From the NCBI RefSeq assembly GCF_007748035.1, contig NZ_CP036278.1:4278001-4342000 (forward strand): a stretch of DNA of 64,000 nucleotides. Direction: 5' to 3'. Both the position numbers and the translations under genes were made by a program. This DNA is from Aeoliella mucimassa. Its GTDB lineage: Bacteria; Planctomycetota; Planctomycetia; Pirellulales; Lacipirellulaceae. Below the pieces are notes generated by a model. That model ran no database searches, was not told the DNA's origin, and saw only the letters and a list, made by a program, of their open reading frames with translations. Each line of letters begins with the position of its first letter. Position 1 is the stretch's first letter. Positions 1,037 to 57,962 of the stretch are shown one piece after another.

Positions 1037-1545
1037 GAATAGATTCAATGTTCCCATCGATGGGAACATTGAATCTCCGCCCACTCTACAAAACCAGTGG
1101 TTTTCGACCACGAATAGATTCCCATTTCCCAAAACGCATCCGATGGGAATCTATTTTTGCAGTGGGAAACTATCGCAAGTCGTTTGCCAGCAATGAGTTG
1201 CATCAACACCTCCGCGATAGTTACCCAGAATAGATTCCCACCCATGGGAAACTATTTTGAGAGGAGTCAGGATTCAGGGGTCCGGGCAGTTGGGAGTTGG
1301 GAGAGTCCGTAGCGTGGGACCAGGAGCTTCCAGCGACGCAGCCCCACGACCGCTTTACCATTCGCGCAGCAACGAACCCGGGCGCACACGAACGATCGCC
1401 TGCGCACTGCCAGCAGTTCGATCTATCAGACAAAGCATTACATCATTCAGCCTCCACTTACTTAAAAGCCAACAGCCGATCGCTGAAAGCCGACAGCGAA
1501 CGAATACCTATCCATTAGAACACCATAGGTGGCCAATTACCAATA
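1037..1545. repeat. Dispersed palindrome-rich repeat, copy A
   Basis: About 510 bases that recur at 21309-22420 (split by an IS) and 57420-57910. Shared blocks include AAAACCAGTGGTTTT, TGCATCAACACCTCC or close variants, GAGTCAGGATTC, CCAGCGACGCAGCCCCA and a 3' end near GGTGGCCAATT. Three inverted repeats lie in the first 220 bases: a perfect 36-base palindrome at 1041-1076, AATAGATTCCCA at 1113-1124 facing TGGGAATCTATT at 1144-1155, and AATAGATTCCCA at 1229-1240 facing TGGGAAACTATT at 1245-1256. I see no convincing protein in it. It lies between two divergently transcribed genes. Confidence 0.85.
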
Positions 1546-1778
1546 CAAAACGTCTCGATTGTGAGATGAGTCGGGGACGCTTCGTGGGCTGCTCGGCACG
1601 GAAACCTGCAGATTGGGTTGGCAAAAAATGCTAGCAGAGCCGGCAATCTGAAGTTGGCCGTTTTCGCGAAACTATGTAGATTGTTCAGTTGGCAAATGTC
1701 AGACGACCGCCGGCCCGACCAGTGATGCCGCGGCGCTGACCAACCAGAACGGACCAACTTTGACGCAGGGAGGCGTTG
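1546..1778. other. Intergenic region upstream of the YhaO-like gene
   Basis: This stretch joins the 3' edge of repeat copy A to the YhaO-like gene and presumably carries the promoter of the 1779-6512 pair. I see no confident -35/-10 pair, RNA gene or small coding frame. An AGGGAGG Shine-Dalgarno-like run at 1767-1773 belongs to the downstream gene. Confidence 0.4.
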
Positions 1779-16100: not shown

Positions 16101-18207
16101 CGATGTCAACCAGAACGGCGTACTCGACTACCTCGACTACAACGGTAACCGTATTTTTGACAACGGCATCGATGAGGCACTCGAGCCGATGACCATCACC
16201 CAGCCCGATGGTTCGTACAGTGTTGTGCTTTCGACCGACATTAACTCCGACACCGATATTTTCGGCAATCCACAGGAGTTTGCTTACTACACCGGTGCTG
16301 GTCGTTACACAGTAATGCTCGACCACGTCGATGGCTGGATTCCCACGAAGGATCCTCTGACTGCAGAAGGATTTGCTGGCTCTCTAAACGGCACCTTCTC
16401 GCCGAGCTTAGCGTTCTACAGCATTAACGTAGAACCGGGCGAAACCATCTCGACCGGCCTCGACTTCGGAGTGACGCCCGAAGACAACGCCACGATATCG
16501 GGCTTTGTTTATAACGACCTCAACCAGAATGGCACACGCAACGCTGGCGAAGGTGGTTTGGCTGGTGCAACGGTCTACCTCGATATGGATGCCTCTGGCG
16601 ACCTCTCGGCCGGCGACTTGTCGGTAGTTACTGGTGACAACGGTAGCTATCTATTCGAGGGACTAGCGGCTGGCACCTACGCCATTCACGTGGTTCCACC
16701 TTCCGGCTATGCCGAGGAAGATGGCACCGGGCCAATCGCTGGTCAGTACCCGCATGTAGTGGTCCAAAGTGGCAACTCCGCTGGCAACAACGGCCTGTAC
16801 GACTTTGGTTTCTACGATCCAGCAGCGGCCACGAGCATTGCTCGCGACTATGGCGATCTGGACGACACTTACCAAACGCTTGCTACGTCTGGCGGTGCTA
16901 GTCACGCGATCGTCGATGGATTCTTCCTCGGCAGTGGTGTGTCTTCCGAGGTCGATGGACAGCCAAGTGCGGGCGCTGATCTCGACTCGCTTGACGACGG
17001 TGTTCAAGTACTTGAGACCATTGTGGCTGGTGAGACCATCAGTATCAATGTGATCGCGAGCTCCGACGCCCTATTCCTGCAAGGTTGGATCGACTTCAAC
17101 AACGATGGCGATTTCGACGACCTGGGCGAGCATCTGTCGTTTGGCAATGCGGCCGGAATCACACTGCCGAATTCGCGGCAACTGCAACTCTCTGAAGGAC
17201 TCAACGAGCTTACCTTCGTAGTACCCAATGAAGTAGCTGCTGAGAACCTAGCCGCCCGCTTCCGCTATGGCGAAGGTGGTTACTCGCAGTTCAACCAACC
17301 CACTGGCGAAGCTCTAATCGGTGAAGTCGAAGACTACATCTTGGGATCGACCGTCTCCACCTCGTTCTTCGAGCAACTCGCAGGCGACTACTCCGGCGAC
17401 AACCGGGTGACGATGGACGACTACACCGTTTGGAAACAATCGGTAGGTTCCACCGTGGATCTGCGAGCCGATGGCAACGGCGATGGCACCGTGAACCTCG
17501 CCGATTACACCATCTGGCGTGACAACCTCGGATCGGTATCACTGCCAGTGCAGACGATCTACGCCTCGCCGGCAGCTTTGGCAAGCAGCAAAGCAGATGC
17601 TGAAGACCAAGGCTTGGAACCTGAAGTGGTCGCTTCGTTATCGAGCACCACTTCCAGTGACAGCGATACCCCTGCGTCGGAAGACGCTGGCAACGCTGCC
17701 GTGGCTGCAGCCAGTACCAGCGAAACAGAGCAGCCTGAAGTCAGTGCGGGCGACGCTTCGACCGCTGTGGCTGACACCAGCGAATCGGCCACGCTCGACG
17801 ATATTGCCATCGTCCACCATACCGATACGCAGGACGACGTGGTTGCTTCCAGTGAAGTCACCGTGGTAACCGATGTGTACGGTCCTGTCTTCCAGCAGAT
17901 TGATTCCATGGCGACTCCGCTGACGAGCCGCTCGCAGGAAACGAAGCTGCCGGGCATGATCTCCACGGTCGATGGCAACTTGGTTGATCGCACCGCTGGC
18001 AAGCTCGCTAAGAGCGGCAAGCCAGTTGCCCAACTTCCCCAGAACGACGTGGAAGTGAATGGCAGCACGCCCAACGTGGTTGATTTGGCCTTTGCTCAGC
18101 CGGAAGCTGACAACGACCTGCTGGTCGACGGCTTCCTCGACTCTCGTGAAGCTTCCACCGACGAAGCCTTGGTTCTCGCCCTTGAAGAACTTGAAACTGT
18201 CTTCTAA
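13183..18207 (+). CDS. Large secreted S8 (subtilisin-like) serine peptidase with P-domain, SdrD-like, GEVED and dockerin modules
   Basis: 1674 residues. The N-terminus is basic with LERLEDRIVMSA (about 24-35), a planctomycete export-associated motif. The S8 catalytic triad is Asp in VVDSGF (about 203), His in DFHGTAVAG (about 244) and Ser in NGTSAAAP (about 436). Then follow a P/Homo B-like domain (about 640-775, LRMTLVSPDGT ... WQLVIENW), two SdrD B-like repeats (around 850 and 1110, VYIDRNENGEWD and GFVYNDLNQNG), a GEVED domain (about 1225-1390, ending GEVEDYIL) and dockerin-like EF-hand repeats (about 1400-1450, GDYSGDNRVTMDDYTVW and GNGDGTVNLADYTIW). A Ser/Thr/Ala/Glu-rich tail of about 210 residues ends the protein; no PEP-CTERM is seen. 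Likely a cell-surface or released calcium-binding protease. A strong terminator follows. Confidence 0.9.
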   Translation: MGKKSKRSWWKKSRINRDKKLRSLERLEDRIVMSADPIYAEVVSNAQEYITERMLTVAFTNASNLANYSSTQLESATQWVVKTDGTVNASNFLSQTGMPMLKASTALDNTYYAAAGNLSSSSIISLLESNSNIEYFYPSVEANISTRNVTNDPYYDSQWYILNTGQEVSDPNEFNEYTVWGYDLNIEDAWEIATGEGVTVAVVDSGFYQLHPDLVNNVNTALSFNFNQGTNSPILDLEGDFHGTAVAGIIAADGNNGIGTVGVAYDANLADFRFLGTDLLGVTIDDDDIYQLFTLNNEDIEIYNHSWGEGDPSRLLAPMSPGQAQGIIDSVFDSRGNLGVIHVIASGNDAETGDTAANEAFTGSPYVVNVSGLNYSGTTASYTEGGPSILVTAPTDEILTTDLPGENGYNNSNSGLNSDGDPFPDLDYTSEFNGTSAAAPMVAGVVALMVEAAKDNGVDLTLRDVQEILVRSAYQVDATDTGGDDAGGWQVNSRPIFTDPRDVMGLPQGAIDPTYASDPNKPALSGVPESTDFQFALPANGAGYTVHDGFSYGYGHGAVDAKLAVELASNWRTLGGQTNSSIISSSFTNITVPAAETYTGAGNTFTVPGGVGGQPGFGEYYQLWADLMFDPPDELPDPLPVNSRGGQAIPIVVPANYTVEYVEVTMDFAMDSEATEMLRMTLVSPDGTYSELTNWEKVATNGGLTDTGQVTYTFTTNRHWGERTEGNGTIDPITGEVIAANANLDGNGVATSGNWQLVIENWSESGTTLNGSVDFHVANTVGPNTLGGRIKGTIGLDSNADGDYDFIGVHAEEAIVTGLDGVDEIAIANSAAMPTGDSFLLTDNERPVSGIKVYIDRNENGEWDADEDYTYTTADGNYYFDVGWNYTTDTNSPLYDYQIRFELPEGYDVVGDDMHEYRVGIQDDMSVQNYYIESNFILQPHDVTLEGNVYADFNWSNIQDAQESTIEQLRVFIDVNQNGVLDYLDYNGNRIFDNGIDEALEPMTITQPDGSYSVVLSTDINSDTDIFGNPQEFAYYTGAGRYTVMLDHVDGWIPTKDPLTAEGFAGSLNGTFSPSLAFYSINVEPGETISTGLDFGVTPEDNATISGFVYNDLNQNGTRNAGEGGLAGATVYLDMDASGDLSAGDLSVVTGDNGSYLFEGLAAGTYAIHVVPPSGYAEEDGTGPIAGQYPHVVVQSGNSAGNNGLYDFGFYDPAAATSIARDYGDLDDTYQTLATSGGASHAIVDGFFLGSGVSSEVDGQPSAGADLDSLDDGVQVLETIVAGETISINVIASSDALFLQGWIDFNNDGDFDDLGEHLSFGNAAGITLPNSRQLQLSEGLNELTFVVPNEVAAENLAARFRYGEGGYSQFNQPTGEALIGEVEDYILGSTVSTSFFEQLAGDYSGDNRVTMDDYTVWKQSVGSTVDLRADGNGDGTVNLADYTIWRDNLGSVSLPVQTIYASPAALASSKADAEDQGLEPEVVASLSSTTSSDSDTPASEDAGNAAVAAASTSETEQPEVSAGDASTAVADTSESATLDDIAIVHHTDTQDDVVASSEVTVVTDVYGPVFQQIDSMATPLTSRSQETKLPGMISTVDGNLVDRTAGKLAKSGKPVAQLPQNDVEVNGSTPNVVDLAFAQPEADNDLLVDGFLDSREASTDEALVLALEELETVF

Positions 18208-21041: not shown

Positions 21042-21308
21042 CCAAAGCGGTGTAACCTTCCGAGCTTCTCGGTTGGACCATGAGTTCCGACTGCATTTCG
21101 CCGGCGACGAGTCCGAGGGTAATCCGTAGGTAATCGTTCCTCTGGGTCCGGTTCGTGCCGTCGACACGAAGTCAACTCGAGAACCAGTCGGGGTTCGGCA
21201 TCCGGTCATGAGCTTCCCTCCCCAGCTGTTCTCTAGTCGGTCCCAGTCTGCAGCTCCCCGCAGAGGGCGATCTTCCCGACCGGACGAAATAGATTCCCAC
21301 CGCCCACG

Positions 21309-21500
21309 AATAGATTCCCAATTTACCCACCGATGGGAAAATTGAATCTGCACGCACGCTGTAAAACCAGTGGTTTTAGCGACCGAATAGATTCCCATTT
21401 CCCAAAACGCATCGAGTGGGAATCTATTTCTGCGGTGGTTGGCGGTCGCAAGTCGTTGAGAGGTAATAGGTTGCATCAACACCTCCACGGAATGTGCCCA
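21309..21500. repeat. Dispersed repeat, copy B, left part
   Basis: Matches copy C closely from AATAGATTCCCAATTTACCC through AAAACCAGTGGTTTT and TGCATCAACACCTCC to GTGCCCA at 21494-21500, where the match breaks. An extra AATAGATTCCCAC lies just before it at 21288. The match resumes at 22081 after the IS200-like element. The region 21042-21287 upstream of it has no gene I can support. Confidence 0.85.
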
Positions 21501-22080
21501 AACTGAACTACTACCGGCTGGAAGCCGGTAGGTTTGGGAAGAGTTCGTGAGCTACGGACTGAAGTCCTTCACTCACGAAGGCGTTACGCGGAAGTTATCT
21601 TCCCCGTCGCTGGGCTCCGTTCCCCGCTGCCCCTGGATATACGCGGTGATCGCTTCCTCAGTCACACTTCCGCTAGACGCCACAAAATACCCGCGGGCCC
21701 ACAAATGACGCCCCCAGTACTGCTTTTGCAGATGCTGGAACTCCATCAGAAGCTTTCGCGAACTCTTGCCCTTGAGATACTGCATGATCTTGCTGGGCGA
21801 GAGATTCGGAGGGCATGACAACAAAACATGCACATGATCGGCCGAGACCGCCCCCTGCAGTATCTCAATATCGTTCGTCCGACACACCTCACGCACGATT
21901 TCACGCACCCGTACCCCGACGTCACCTCTCAGGATCGCCTTGCGGTACTTCGTGACCCACACGAAATGGTATTTCAAATCAAAGCGGCTATGTGCTCCAG
22001 TCCGGTAACTATCCATCCCAGTAGTATATGAACCTGAAGGTTTCGCCTGAAGGCGAGGGTTCTAACCCCATCGGTTGGAT
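21501..22080 (-). mobile_element. IS200-type element (IS200/IS605 family, tnpA only) inserted in repeat copy B
   Basis: Ends are inferred by comparing copy B with uninterrupted copy C: about 580 extra bases lie between GTGCCCA and AATAGATTCC. As expected for the family there is no terminal inverted repeat or target duplication. Instead there are imperfect subterminal hairpins at both ends: CTACCGGCT/AGCCGGTAG at 21511-21531 and TCGCC/GGCGA at 22043-22056. Only tnpA is present, with no tnpB. The exact end bases may be off by a few positions. Confidence 0.85.
21573..22016 (-). CDS. tnpA: IS200/IS605-family transposase TnpA
   Basis: 147 residues of the Y1 HUH transposase. The metal-binding HUH motif is HVHVLLS (near residue 62). 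The catalytic tyrosine helix lies near the C-terminus (ARGYFVASSGSVTEEAITAYI region), and the opening YHFVWVTKYRK is typical. These enzymes cut and join single-stranded DNA at subterminal hairpins. Length and motifs are normal, so the gene looks functional. It is the only gene of the element. Confidence 0.95.
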   Translation of the reverse strand: MDSYRTGAHSRFDLKYHFVWVTKYRKAILRGDVGVRVREIVREVCRTNDIEILQGAVSADHVHVLLSCPPNLSPSKIMQYLKGKSSRKLLMEFQHLQKQYWGRHLWARGYFVASSGSVTEEAITAYIQGQRGTEPSDGEDNFRVTPS

Positions 22081-22420
22081 AATAGATTCCCACCCATGGG
22101 AAACTATTTTGGGAGGAGTCAGGATTCGGGGGTCAGGGGGCAGGGGATGTCATCTTGAGGGAGCTTCCAGCGACTGAAAGATCTCAGCCGGTCACTTCGA
22201 ACGCGCTATCAACGAGTGCCCCACGACCGCTTTACCAACCGCGCAGCAGTGACCCCGGGCGCCAGCAACCGTTCGCCTGCGCATCGCTAAAGGTTCGAGT
22301 TGATCGGAAACATCACATGTTGCAAACCTCCTCTCATCACAATGCCAACAGCCGAAGGCGGAAAGCCGACAGCCACAACCACCTATTCATTAGAACACCA
22401 CTGGTGGCCAATTTCCAGTG
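22081..22420. repeat. Dispersed repeat, copy B, right part
   Basis: Resumes with AATAGATTCCCACCCATGGG and continues in register with copies A and C: GAGTCAGGATTC, CGACCGCTTTACCA, CGCCTGCGCATCGCTAAA, then TAGAACACCACTGGTGGCCAATT near its end. Confidence 0.85.
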
Positions 22421-22764
22421 AAAATTGGGCTATTTGCGAGTCACCTCACCCCCTGGAGTGCAGGCGGGGGCCAACTCCTTCCCCGCTGTCCTGAACTTGC
22501 CAGCCAACCAACCAGGCAGCCAGTTCCTCACCTCGACGTAGCGAGGGACGATCGTCCTGGACAAAGGGAGGGGGAAATACCGCCGAATGATCGCACGGTG
22601 TCCCTCATGCGGCGACGCTTCTGCGCGGCGTTTCACGGGTGGCTCAACCACACCTTGCACGGGGAGTACGAAGATCGGCGCCCTGGGAATTTGGGTCGCG
22701 TTTAGGTTACACTGGGGCCTTGCCGCCGCCCCCCGTCCGCCCCTTCCACCGTAGGCCTTTTTGG
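22421..22764. other. Intergenic region before the POT transporter
   Basis: GC-rich spacer between repeat copy B and the transporter start. I see no RNA gene or supported coding frame and no well-formed promoter. The open frame that extends the transporter upstream to 22639 has a composition unlike a protein N-terminus. Confidence 0.35.
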
Positions 22765-57419: not shown

Positions 57420-57910
57420 ATAGATTCCCAATTTACCCACCGATGGGAAAATTGAATCTGCACGCACGCTATAAAACCAGTGGTTTTCGGCTGCGAATAG
57501 ATTCCCATTTCCCAAAGTGCATCCATTGGGAATCTATTTTCGCGGTGGGAATCAATCGCAAGTCGTTTCACTGCATGCATTTACATCAACACCTCCGCGG
57601 AAAGTGCCCAGAATAGATTCCCACCCATGGGAAACTATTCTGGAAGGAGTCAGGATTCAGGGGTCCGGGATAAGGGCAGCTGAGAGTTGGGAGAGTCCGT
57701 AGCGTGGGTCCAGGAGGTTCCAGCGACGCAGCCCCATCACCGGATTACCAACACGCGCAGCAGCGAACGCCCACGCCGGCAAACCATCGCCTGCGCGTCG
57801 CTAAACGTTCGAGTTCATCGCAAGCATCACATCTCGATTACCTCCAACCAGTAATAAGCCAACACAGCACCTGTTCATCAGAACACACTCGGTGGCCAAT
57901 TGCGAGCGAA
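57420..57910. repeat. Dispersed repeat, copy C (uninterrupted)
   Basis: About 490 bases matching copies A and B in order: TAGATTCCCAATTTACCC, AAAACCAGTGGTTTT, GAATAGATTCCCATTTCCC, CATCAACACCTCC, GTGCCCAGAATAGATTCCC (the site that IS200 occupies in copy B), GAGTCAGGATTC, CCAGCGACGCAGCCCCA, and the end GGTGGCCAATT. It begins 13 bases after an esterase stop. No protein is encoded. Confidence 0.85.
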
Positions 57911-57962
57911 AACTGCCACGAATTGCAAACCAACTGCTGTCGTCTAGCGAACTGGGATCTCG

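What the first reader, a model, noticed from the sequence alone, without database searches (positions are those of the whole stretch)
1037..1545. A ~0.5 kb dispersed, palindrome-rich repeat present three times in 57 kb
Copies at 1037-1545, 21309-22420 (interrupted) and 57420-57910 share the same ordered blocks, including several inverted AATAGATTCCCA/TGGGAATCTATT pairs and a conserved end near GGTGGCCAATT. The copies diverge in sequence but keep the inverted pairs, which suggests selection on structure rather than on a protein. No transposase belongs to it, so it could be a MITE-like or REP/BIME-like element, or a structured RNA family specific to this lineage.
Basis: seen in the sequence. Interest (0 to 1): 0.7.

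Follow-up and report, generated by a model that had tools for sequence, protein, structure and literature searches.

The report
Self-spacing palindromic repeats across a chromosome
The three repeats are part of a family of well over a hundred half-kilobase non-coding elements in this bacterium; they are built from one 12-letter word written forwards and backwards, they almost never sit within 12 kilobases of each other, and a sister species has a similar family built from a different word, which hints at chromosome sites recognised by a fast-changing partner.

Summary
The window copies (1038-1550; 21309-22426, split by an IS200; 57420-57915) belong to a family of about 146 copies in this 6.61 Mb genome (110 by one exact pattern, 130 located). 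BLAST found none in 58 relatives. Of 103 copies studied, none lies wholly inside a predicted gene. The left 225 bp is nearly constant in length, and its 12-bp word AATAGATTCCCA is kept at 96-99% even in copies without a detected right part. No two of 82 full copies exceed 91% identity. I found no terminal inverted repeats, target duplication, own transposase or within-species covariation, so neither a classical MITE nor an RNA family is supported. Two findings go further. Sister species G001 and G003 carry similarly built families with other words (GAGTTTTGGGCC; CAATTGTCC), though homology to this family is unproven. Copies also avoid each other: 0 of 99 gaps under 12 kb (17.6 expected), in either orientation; G001 shows 0 of 45 (7.4 expected). 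The 12-kb limit was chosen after seeing the gaps. Best reading: protein-bound chromosomal sites, once mobile, now maintained in place. Rivals: a dormant transposon with target immunity; a RAYT-moved repeat whose arms correct each other.

The parts
1038..1550 (+). Element copy 1, full length (model positions 1-507)
   Evidence: nhmmer 480.7 bits
1041..1076 (+). Copy 1, left hairpin: perfect 18-nt inverted repeat (two bases shorter on its left arm than in the other aligned copies)
1113..1155 (+). Copy 1, word pair AATAGATTCCCA / TGGGAATCTATT
1163..1227 (+). Copy 1, variable stem (TGGGAAACTATCGC / GCGATAGTTACCCA); broken in many other copies
1229..1256 (+). Copy 1, third word pair AATAGATTCCCA ccca TGGGAAACTATT
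21288..21299 (+). Copy 2, extra word unit 21 bp left of the element start
   Evidence: unit spacing 20-22 bp
21309..21525 (+). Element copy 2, left piece (its end overlaps the IS200 edge)
21502..22086 (-). IS200 (585-bp match to other copies) that interrupts copy 2; Y1 transposase ORF 21573-22016
22079..22426 (+). Element copy 2, right piece
57420..57915 (+). Element copy 3, full length
   Evidence: nhmmer 485.8 bits; left 224 nt folds with z about -7.5
57863..57915 (+). Copy 3, conserved right end (CATCAGAACACACTCGGTGGCCAATTGCGAGCGAAAACTG)

Best explanation
Each copy is a chromosomal DNA site: a platform of several copies of one 12-bp word, in direct order 20-22 bp (two helical turns) apart and in inverted pairs, on which a sequence-specific DNA-binding protein of this genome assembles, possibly with the strands extruded as hairpins. 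The sites spread by copying in the past, separately in each species. They are now kept in place because the protein uses them, for example to organise or insulate the chromosome, and two sites within about 12 kb are either blocked from arising or lost. Shown here: the family, its intergenic placement, its word structure, the unequal conservation of words and loops, the species-specific words and the exclusion zone. Inferred: the protein, its role, that the words are held by selection, and that the exclusion is a selected feature rather than an insertion rule.
For: Left block is 223-226 bp in 78 of 82 full copies, while whole elements run from 409 to 699 bp. Arms are 98% identical to consensus, other left-block columns 84%, in 82 full copies. 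In the two most diverged of five copies without a right part above my cut, arms are 97 and 96% while variable columns are 43 and 54% (full-copy mean 72%); the other three have arms at 99% and variable columns at 62-75%. Four further divergent copies keep the words round a middle that does not follow the consensus (read by eye). Closest pair of 82 is 91% identical, so the conservation is not recent copying in this sample. Of 415 exact 12-mers in the 934 kb read, 412 lie in or beside elements. 0 of 99 gaps under 12 kb: 9.4 same-orientation and 8.2 opposite-orientation gaps expected, p below 1e-4 and 1e-4; in G001 0 of 45 against 7.4, p 1e-4. 0 of 103 copies lie wholly inside a predicted gene. 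Sister species use other words in similar elements.
Against: No protein was identified. At least 11 of 103 copies are split by insertion sequences and some lack a right part, so many copies are dispensable. In the two most diverged copies the conserved non-palindromic columns fell to 76 and 84% while the arms stayed at 97 and 96%, which fits correction of arms by one another better than selection on the whole site. The column classes were defined on the full copies themselves. Plus is favoured in both replication arms (22:14 and 42:22), so there is no fixed orientation to replication. Copies sit between convergent, divergent and co-directional genes alike. In G003 one of only six exact-word gaps is 8.9 kb. 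Three of 129 gaps in the 130-element list are under 10 kb. The 12-kb limit was picked after seeing the gaps.
Confidence: 0.4

Rival explanations
1. A non-autonomous transposon family, now dormant, whose transposition machinery showed target immunity: a resident copy, recognised through the 12-bp word, blocked insertion of another copy within about 12 kb. The word repeats are transposase-binding sites, as at the ends of Tn7-like and Mu-like elements (recalled).
For: Exclusion is independent of orientation in G000 and also seen in G001. Multiple word units are 20-22 bp apart at the left end. The left edge is sharp. At six loci where a G000 gene lies within 500 bp of a copy, five G001 counterparts have no G001-type word beside them.
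Against: No TSD at a fixed offset in 42 copies without extra units, no target motif. The word is not at the right end. Mu-transpos_C was not found, but that search's controls were silent too. No copy pair of 82 is over 91% identical. Arms stay intact in copies without a detected right part.
Confidence: 0.3
2. A passive REP-like repeat moved by a Y1/RAYT-type transposase on single-stranded DNA. The words are kept alike by template switching between arms (quasi-palindrome correction), and the spacing is a by-product.
For: Hairpin-rich, intergenic, no TSD. In the two most diverged copies only the arms, not the other conserved columns, are intact. A 224-aa REP-associated tyrosine transposase (NF047646, 80.6 bits against a cut-off of 80) lies 1.65 kb from a copy in G000, and its 83%-identical G001 counterpart lies about 400 bp from a G001 element in the same relative orientation. 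Y1 genes flanked by short palindromes exist in this genome.
Against: That RAYT is not flanked on both sides by element sequence. Its best match in G003, which has such elements, is only 37% identical. The conserved non-palindromic blocks of the full copies are not explained. I know of no exclusion zone for Y1 elements (recalled).
Confidence: 0.2
3. A structured non-coding RNA family transcribed from over a hundred loci.
For: The left block of copy 3 folds far better than shuffles (RNA z -7.6). Conserved non-paired stretches such as CATCAACACCTCC exist. The covariation score of the tested structure is slightly above its shuffles (0.034 against 0.031; 14 of 500 shuffles reach it).
Against: Further pair types 26 against 26.0 in shuffles, pairs with a change on both sides 6 against 6.6. 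The variable stem is broken in many copies. No Rfam match in the window. DNA folding z is the same (-7.5).
Confidence: 0.06

Closest known systems
REP/BIME/REPIN sequences with RAYT transposases
   Same: High-copy, intergenic, palindromic, lineage-specific, without own coding capacity
   Different: About 0.5 kb rather than 20-40 bp units; a 12-bp word repeated several times; none of four single-copy Y1 genes is flanked by it on both sides; a 12-kb exclusion zone
MITEs, including palindrome-ended PATE elements (recalled)
   Same: Short, non-coding, dispersed, hairpin-bearing; five of six sister loci looked at lack them
   Different: No terminal inverted repeats in the two copies tested, no TSD, no parent transposon found, no near-identical copies among 82
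BOX / ERIC-type modular intergenic repeats (recalled; PMC3049150 seen in a search listing only)
   Same: Modular mosaic, with variable numbers of a short unit at one end and varying partners at the other
   Different: Much longer, spaced apart; sequence likeness was not tested directly
DNA uptake sequences (12-mers, often in inverted pairs; recalled)
   Same: One species-specific 12-mer in hundreds of copies, often inverted
   Different: 412 of 415 exact 12-mers seen lie inside or beside the elements, not scattered singly

Membership tests
MITE | Terminal inverted repeats | tested here: not met
   Inverted repeats in copies 1 and 3 never join the left and right ends; other copies not run
MITE | Target-site duplication | tested here: not met
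   Scan of k 3-9 over many end offsets in 42 copies: best is 3 matches against 0.24 expected, no consistent offset
MITE | Related autonomous transposon sharing the ends | tested here: inconclusive
   None seen in the 934 kb read; the genes inside 11 interrupted copies are IS110, IS5-like and IS200 (family names IS110 and IS5 are by eye); 86% of the genome was not read
REP/BIME with RAYT | 20-40-bp palindromic unit | tested here: not met
   409-699 bp, 82 copies
REP/BIME with RAYT | A RAYT gene flanked by the same palindrome | tested here: not met
   Within about 1.5 kb, three single-copy Y1 genes are flanked by other palindromes; the 224-aa RAYT has element-extension sequence on one side only
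REP/BIME with RAYT | GTAG or CGTC tag beside the palindrome | not tested
   -
Structured RNA family | Compensatory base changes | tested here: not met
   78 copies: further pair types 26 observed, 26.0 shuffled; cells paired 89.2 against 89.0%; covariation score 0.034 against 0.031, reached by 14 of 500 shuffles
Structured RNA family | Match to a described family | tested here: not met
   No Rfam 15 match at gathering score in the whole window
Structured RNA family | Transcription | not testable with these tools
   No expression data
Transposon with target immunity (Tn7/Mu kind) | Copies exclude each other in cis | tested here: met
   0 of 99 gaps under 12 kb in G000, 0 of 45 in G001; but 3 of 129 under 10 kb in the wider G000 list and 1 of 6 at 8.9 kb in G003
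Transposon with target immunity (Tn7/Mu kind) | Mu/TnsB-type transposase in the genome | tested here: inconclusive
   PF09299: 0 of 3 genomes, but 0 of 14 controls too
Transposon with target immunity (Tn7/Mu kind) | Short TSD and binding repeats at both ends | tested here: not met
   No TSD; the word is absent from the right-end alignment
DNA uptake sequence | Singly scattered 12-mers, many in genes | tested here: not met
   412 of 415 exact 12-mers in or beside elements

The most novel reading that the evidence does not exclude
A chromosome-wide set of self-spacing elements: the genome carries well over a hundred half-kilobase palindromic platforms, written in a species-specific 12-bp word that is held constant across copies and replaced as a whole between species, and a resident copy keeps nearly every other copy at least about 12 kb away in either orientation. 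Word and trans-acting reader would co-evolve, as restriction or uptake words do.
Probability: 0.33. Interest if true: 0.87.

Novelty: new variant of a known kind. Interest (0 to 1): 0.66.

Why it matters
Dispersed palindromic repeats are common in bacteria, but I know of none (recalled) whose copies keep a minimum distance in two species while the recognised word differs. If confirmed it is either target immunity in a tiny element with no transposase of its own, or a chromosome-organising site system in a group with unusual nucleoids (recalled). Both give a short, defined word with which to fish out the partner protein.

Tried and rejected
Structured RNA: rejected as leading idea because stems do not covary within the species beyond a marginal score. 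DNA uptake word: rejected. Orientation to replication: GC skew of the stretches puts the switch points near 6.5/0 and 2.3 Mb, but plus copies outnumber minus in both arms. Deletion between nearby direct repeats as cause of the spacing: rejected because opposite-orientation neighbours are equally missing and copies are only 77% identical on average. Regular spacing beyond a 12-kb dead zone: not shown (p 0.08). Carriage on viruses or plasmids: one pattern in viral contigs and one BLAST in plasmids, nothing. An autonomous version of the element: genes in 11 interrupted copies are unrelated insertion sequences. Homology of the G000 element with the G001 and G003 elements by profile: not significant (best E 0.033). 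A profile of 19 G001 right ends has its best hit at the right end in at least 55 of 82 G000 copies, but only 18% of copies score above the 95th percentile of random genomic stretches, and without the CATTAGA anchor the signal vanishes. A pattern from the G001 core (two mismatches allowed) gives 22 matches in G001 and 0-2 in each of 58 other genomes. Neighbouring genes of 36 G001 elements against the G000 stretches gave scattered matches only, apart from the RAYT. Literature: seven searches listed no paper on such a family; PMC3733652 was seen in passages, the others as listings only.

Full report
Observation. The three copies are real. A profile of 18 copies, searched over 934 kb of this genome (99 stretches, chosen around hits, so enriched for copies), finds 103 elements, 92 with both ends. 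The window copies are 1038-1550, 21309-22426 (split by an IS200) and 57420-57915. The genome (G000) is 6,608,792 bases in one contig. From the 12-mer counts I estimate about 94 plus and 52 minus copies. One exact 24-base pattern occurs 70 times on plus and 40 times on minus, p 0.005 for the bias. A union of all lists gives 130 places.

Distribution. BLAST with copy 3 over 59 genomes of this order (G000 and 58 relatives, three of them of the same genus) matched G000 alone at E 1e-5, with at most 10 candidates per genome scored. The 12-mer occurs 586 times in G000 and 0-4 times in each of 23 others. The inverted pair as a pattern hits two single stretches, in Peptoniphilus and Dyadobacter, in the contigs of 84,980 species (I did not examine them; near relatives of the window may be left out there) and none in viral contigs; the element has no match in plasmids. 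I did not establish the organism's name.

Anatomy. Left to right: 0-4 extra word units 20-22 bp apart (49 of 91 copies have at least one); a left block of 223-226 bp in 78 of 82 full copies, with three word pairs and the small palindrome AAAACCAGTGGTTTT (the other four copies have internal deletions); a length-variable AG-rich stretch of 7-8-base repeats; a GC-rich block; and a right end CATTAGAACACC..GGTGGCCAATTCCCAGCGAAAACTG. Up to 47% of copies run on into further repeated modules. Folding is strong: z -7.5 as DNA and -7.6 as RNA for the left block of copy 3. The predicted fold pairs the first arm with the last arm of the second pair round the small palindrome.

Words, not covarying stems. 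In 78 aligned left blocks the arms hardly vary. The one variable stem is broken in many copies, its two sides vary largely independently, and the count of pair types equals shuffles; the covariation score is marginally above them (0.034 against 0.031, reached by 14 of 500 shuffles). So conservation is mainly of sequence. In the third pair one position is A-A in 75 of 78 copies and another G-G in 20.

In-place conservation. Over 82 full copies the mean pairwise identity is 77% and the maximum 91%, so no recent copying is visible in this sample (82 of about 146). Arms are 98% identical to consensus, against 84% for the rest of the left block; in five copies classed as truncated the figures are 98% and 75%. 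One of these five (3989138) is in fact split by an IS5-like element, its right piece scoring below my cut. In the two most diverged (1100533, 1165727) arms are 97 and 96%, other conserved columns 76 and 84%, variable columns 43 and 54%; in the other three arms are 99%, variable columns 62-75%, close to the full-copy mean of 72%. The column classes were drawn from the full copies, so this contrast is partly built in; the strength lies in the two diverged copies and in four more (693760, 891380, 1233100, 1765400) that, read by eye, keep the words round a middle unlike the consensus. Seven IS-split copies with a whole left block look like full copies; three IS200-split ones (4148571, 4299309, 3885209) have insertion sequence inside the aligned block and were left out of the column classes, and the four copies with internal deletions have lower arm values. 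A dead repeat would not keep its arms so, and a recently active one would show near-identical pairs. Remaining options are selection in place, or correction of arms by one another; the loss of the other conserved columns in the two diverged copies leans to the latter for those copies.

Sister species. In 395 kb of G001 (same genus) a blind repeat search found short dispersed repeats built on GAGTTTTGGGCC. That word occurs 100 times in G001 and 0-2 times in each of 16 other genomes, none in G000. Forty-one oriented loci, after removal of duplicates, show word pairs, a central AAACCCCTTGTTTTCTCGG-like loop and related words such as GAGTTGTTCCAC; in 19 of the 41 a right end CATTAGATCACAC..GATTTCTACGGCGACTTTTTTACA follows about 280-440 bases from the start of the core. 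In 392 kb of G003 four elements use CAATTGTCC; a right end like GGTGGCCCACTTTCTACAAAAATCGC follows two of them (L238, and a variant in L244) and stands at two other places, one of which (L241) has GTTTTGCCCC words instead. The 13-mer AAGGGACAATTGA occurs exactly 29 times in G003 and at most once in each of 8 other genomes (48 against 0-10 with one mismatch). The G001 profile also hits G003 (E 1.9e-6 and 4.7e-6, places not examined), whereas G000 against either is not significant. So likeness of the G000 family to the others rests on plan, right-end motif and spacing, not on proven homology. Of six loci where a G000 gene within 500 bp of a copy has a G001 counterpart (60% identity or more) in my stretches, five counterparts have no G001-type word beside them; at one (G000 5480321) two neighbouring genes keep their order with 231 bp between them in G001. 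The sixth has an element 1.3 kb away in another relative orientation. Copies thus seem to have arisen or moved separately in each lineage.

Exclusion zone. In the 100 listed of 110 exact matches (the last ten, beyond 6.12 Mb, were not listed) no gap is under 12 kb; random placement gives 9.4 same-orientation and 8.2 opposite-orientation gaps (p below 1e-4 and 1e-4). I chose 12 kb after seeing the gaps; the smallest in that list is 12.0 kb. The union of 130 has three gaps under 10 kb (3.3, 5.6 and 9.8 kb) against 23 expected. In a list complete for the first 2.13 Mb the gap CV is 0.71 against 0.97 expected, p 0.009. In G001, 72 word clusters give 45 within-contig gaps, the smallest 14.9 kb, with 7.4 under 12 kb expected, p 1e-4 (lengths of some contigs were assumed as last position plus 20 kb). 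In G003 only six exact-word gaps exist and one is 8.9 kb. Beyond the dead zone the spacing is compatible with chance (p 0.08). The null is uniform placement; I had no other repeat family of this genome as control, though two IS5-like copies do lie 6 kb apart.

Surroundings. 0 of 103 copies lie wholly inside a predicted gene, by a simple hexamer caller of mine that% of the DNA coding; partial overlaps were not excluded. Copies lie nearer to gene ends than starts, and 26 of 89 with both neighbours called sit between convergent genes, against 56 of 324 intergenic gaps in the same stretches (no test run). No TSD or target motif was found. Three single-copy Y1 transposase genes are flanked by other short palindromes; one of these palindromes is a module often found just right of the elements. 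A fourth, a REP-associated tyrosine transposase, lies near a copy in both G000 and G001, which may be chance.

Judgement. The constant words, their survival round changed middles, species-specific replacement and the orientation-free exclusion fit best a set of protein-bound sites that were once mobile. A dormant transposon with target immunity is the main rival, and a RAYT-moved repeat with self-correcting arms the next. I call it a new variant of a known kind: dispersed intergenic palindromic repeats, with a spacing rule and word switching that the searches listed did not turn up.

Noticed in passing
window 21502-22086: IS200 with Y1 transposase inside copy 2; six intact and three shortened copies of this transposase in the genome, three of them inside elements.
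   Followed up: partly
G000 16885-18067 and 6275095-6276277 (L060, L138): Two IS110-type elements of 1183 bp, identical by eye, in the same orientation relative to the host element and at the same model position (about 270), as if the IS targets the repeat.
   Followed up: no
G000 1660443-1661663; L261 1328-1349 and 1924-1952: Another IS110-type element sits at a palindrome AGGAGGGCTCTCCGAGCCCGAT that also flanks a single-copy Y1 gene in inverted order.
   Followed up: partly
L262 1102-1145 and 1987-2016: The hairpin module TTTAGCCCGCAGCCGAAGGCGATGGCTA, common just right of the elements, flanks a Y1 gene on both sides in inverted order: it looks like a RAYT-REP pair.
   Followed up: partly
G000 1852171-1852833; L177 4575-5237: A REP-associated tyrosine transposase lies downstream of an element's right end, pointing at it, in both G000 and G001 (83% identity).
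   Followed up: partly
Alignment A1 columns 207-210 (window 1241-1244, 57624-57627): The loop of the third word pair is mostly CCCA or TGGG, reverse complements of each other, as if the hairpin tip flips.
   Followed up: no
G000 whole genome: Copies favour the plus strand (70:40) in both replication arms, for which I have no explanation.
   Followed up: partly
G003 contigs C19, C38, C45, C73, C81: Several contigs begin within about 250 bases of the G003 word, suggesting near-identical copies there that broke the assembly.
   Followed up: no
L219 and L225 (G001 contigs C46 and C70): Two G001 elements on different contigs share an identical 67-base right end, so some G001 copies may be recent.
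   Followed up: no
L140-L159 (G014, same family): Another genus has unrelated 70-95-bp paired palindromes (GCCGACGGGCTCCGCCCCGTCGG type) as a dispersed repeat.
   Followed up: no
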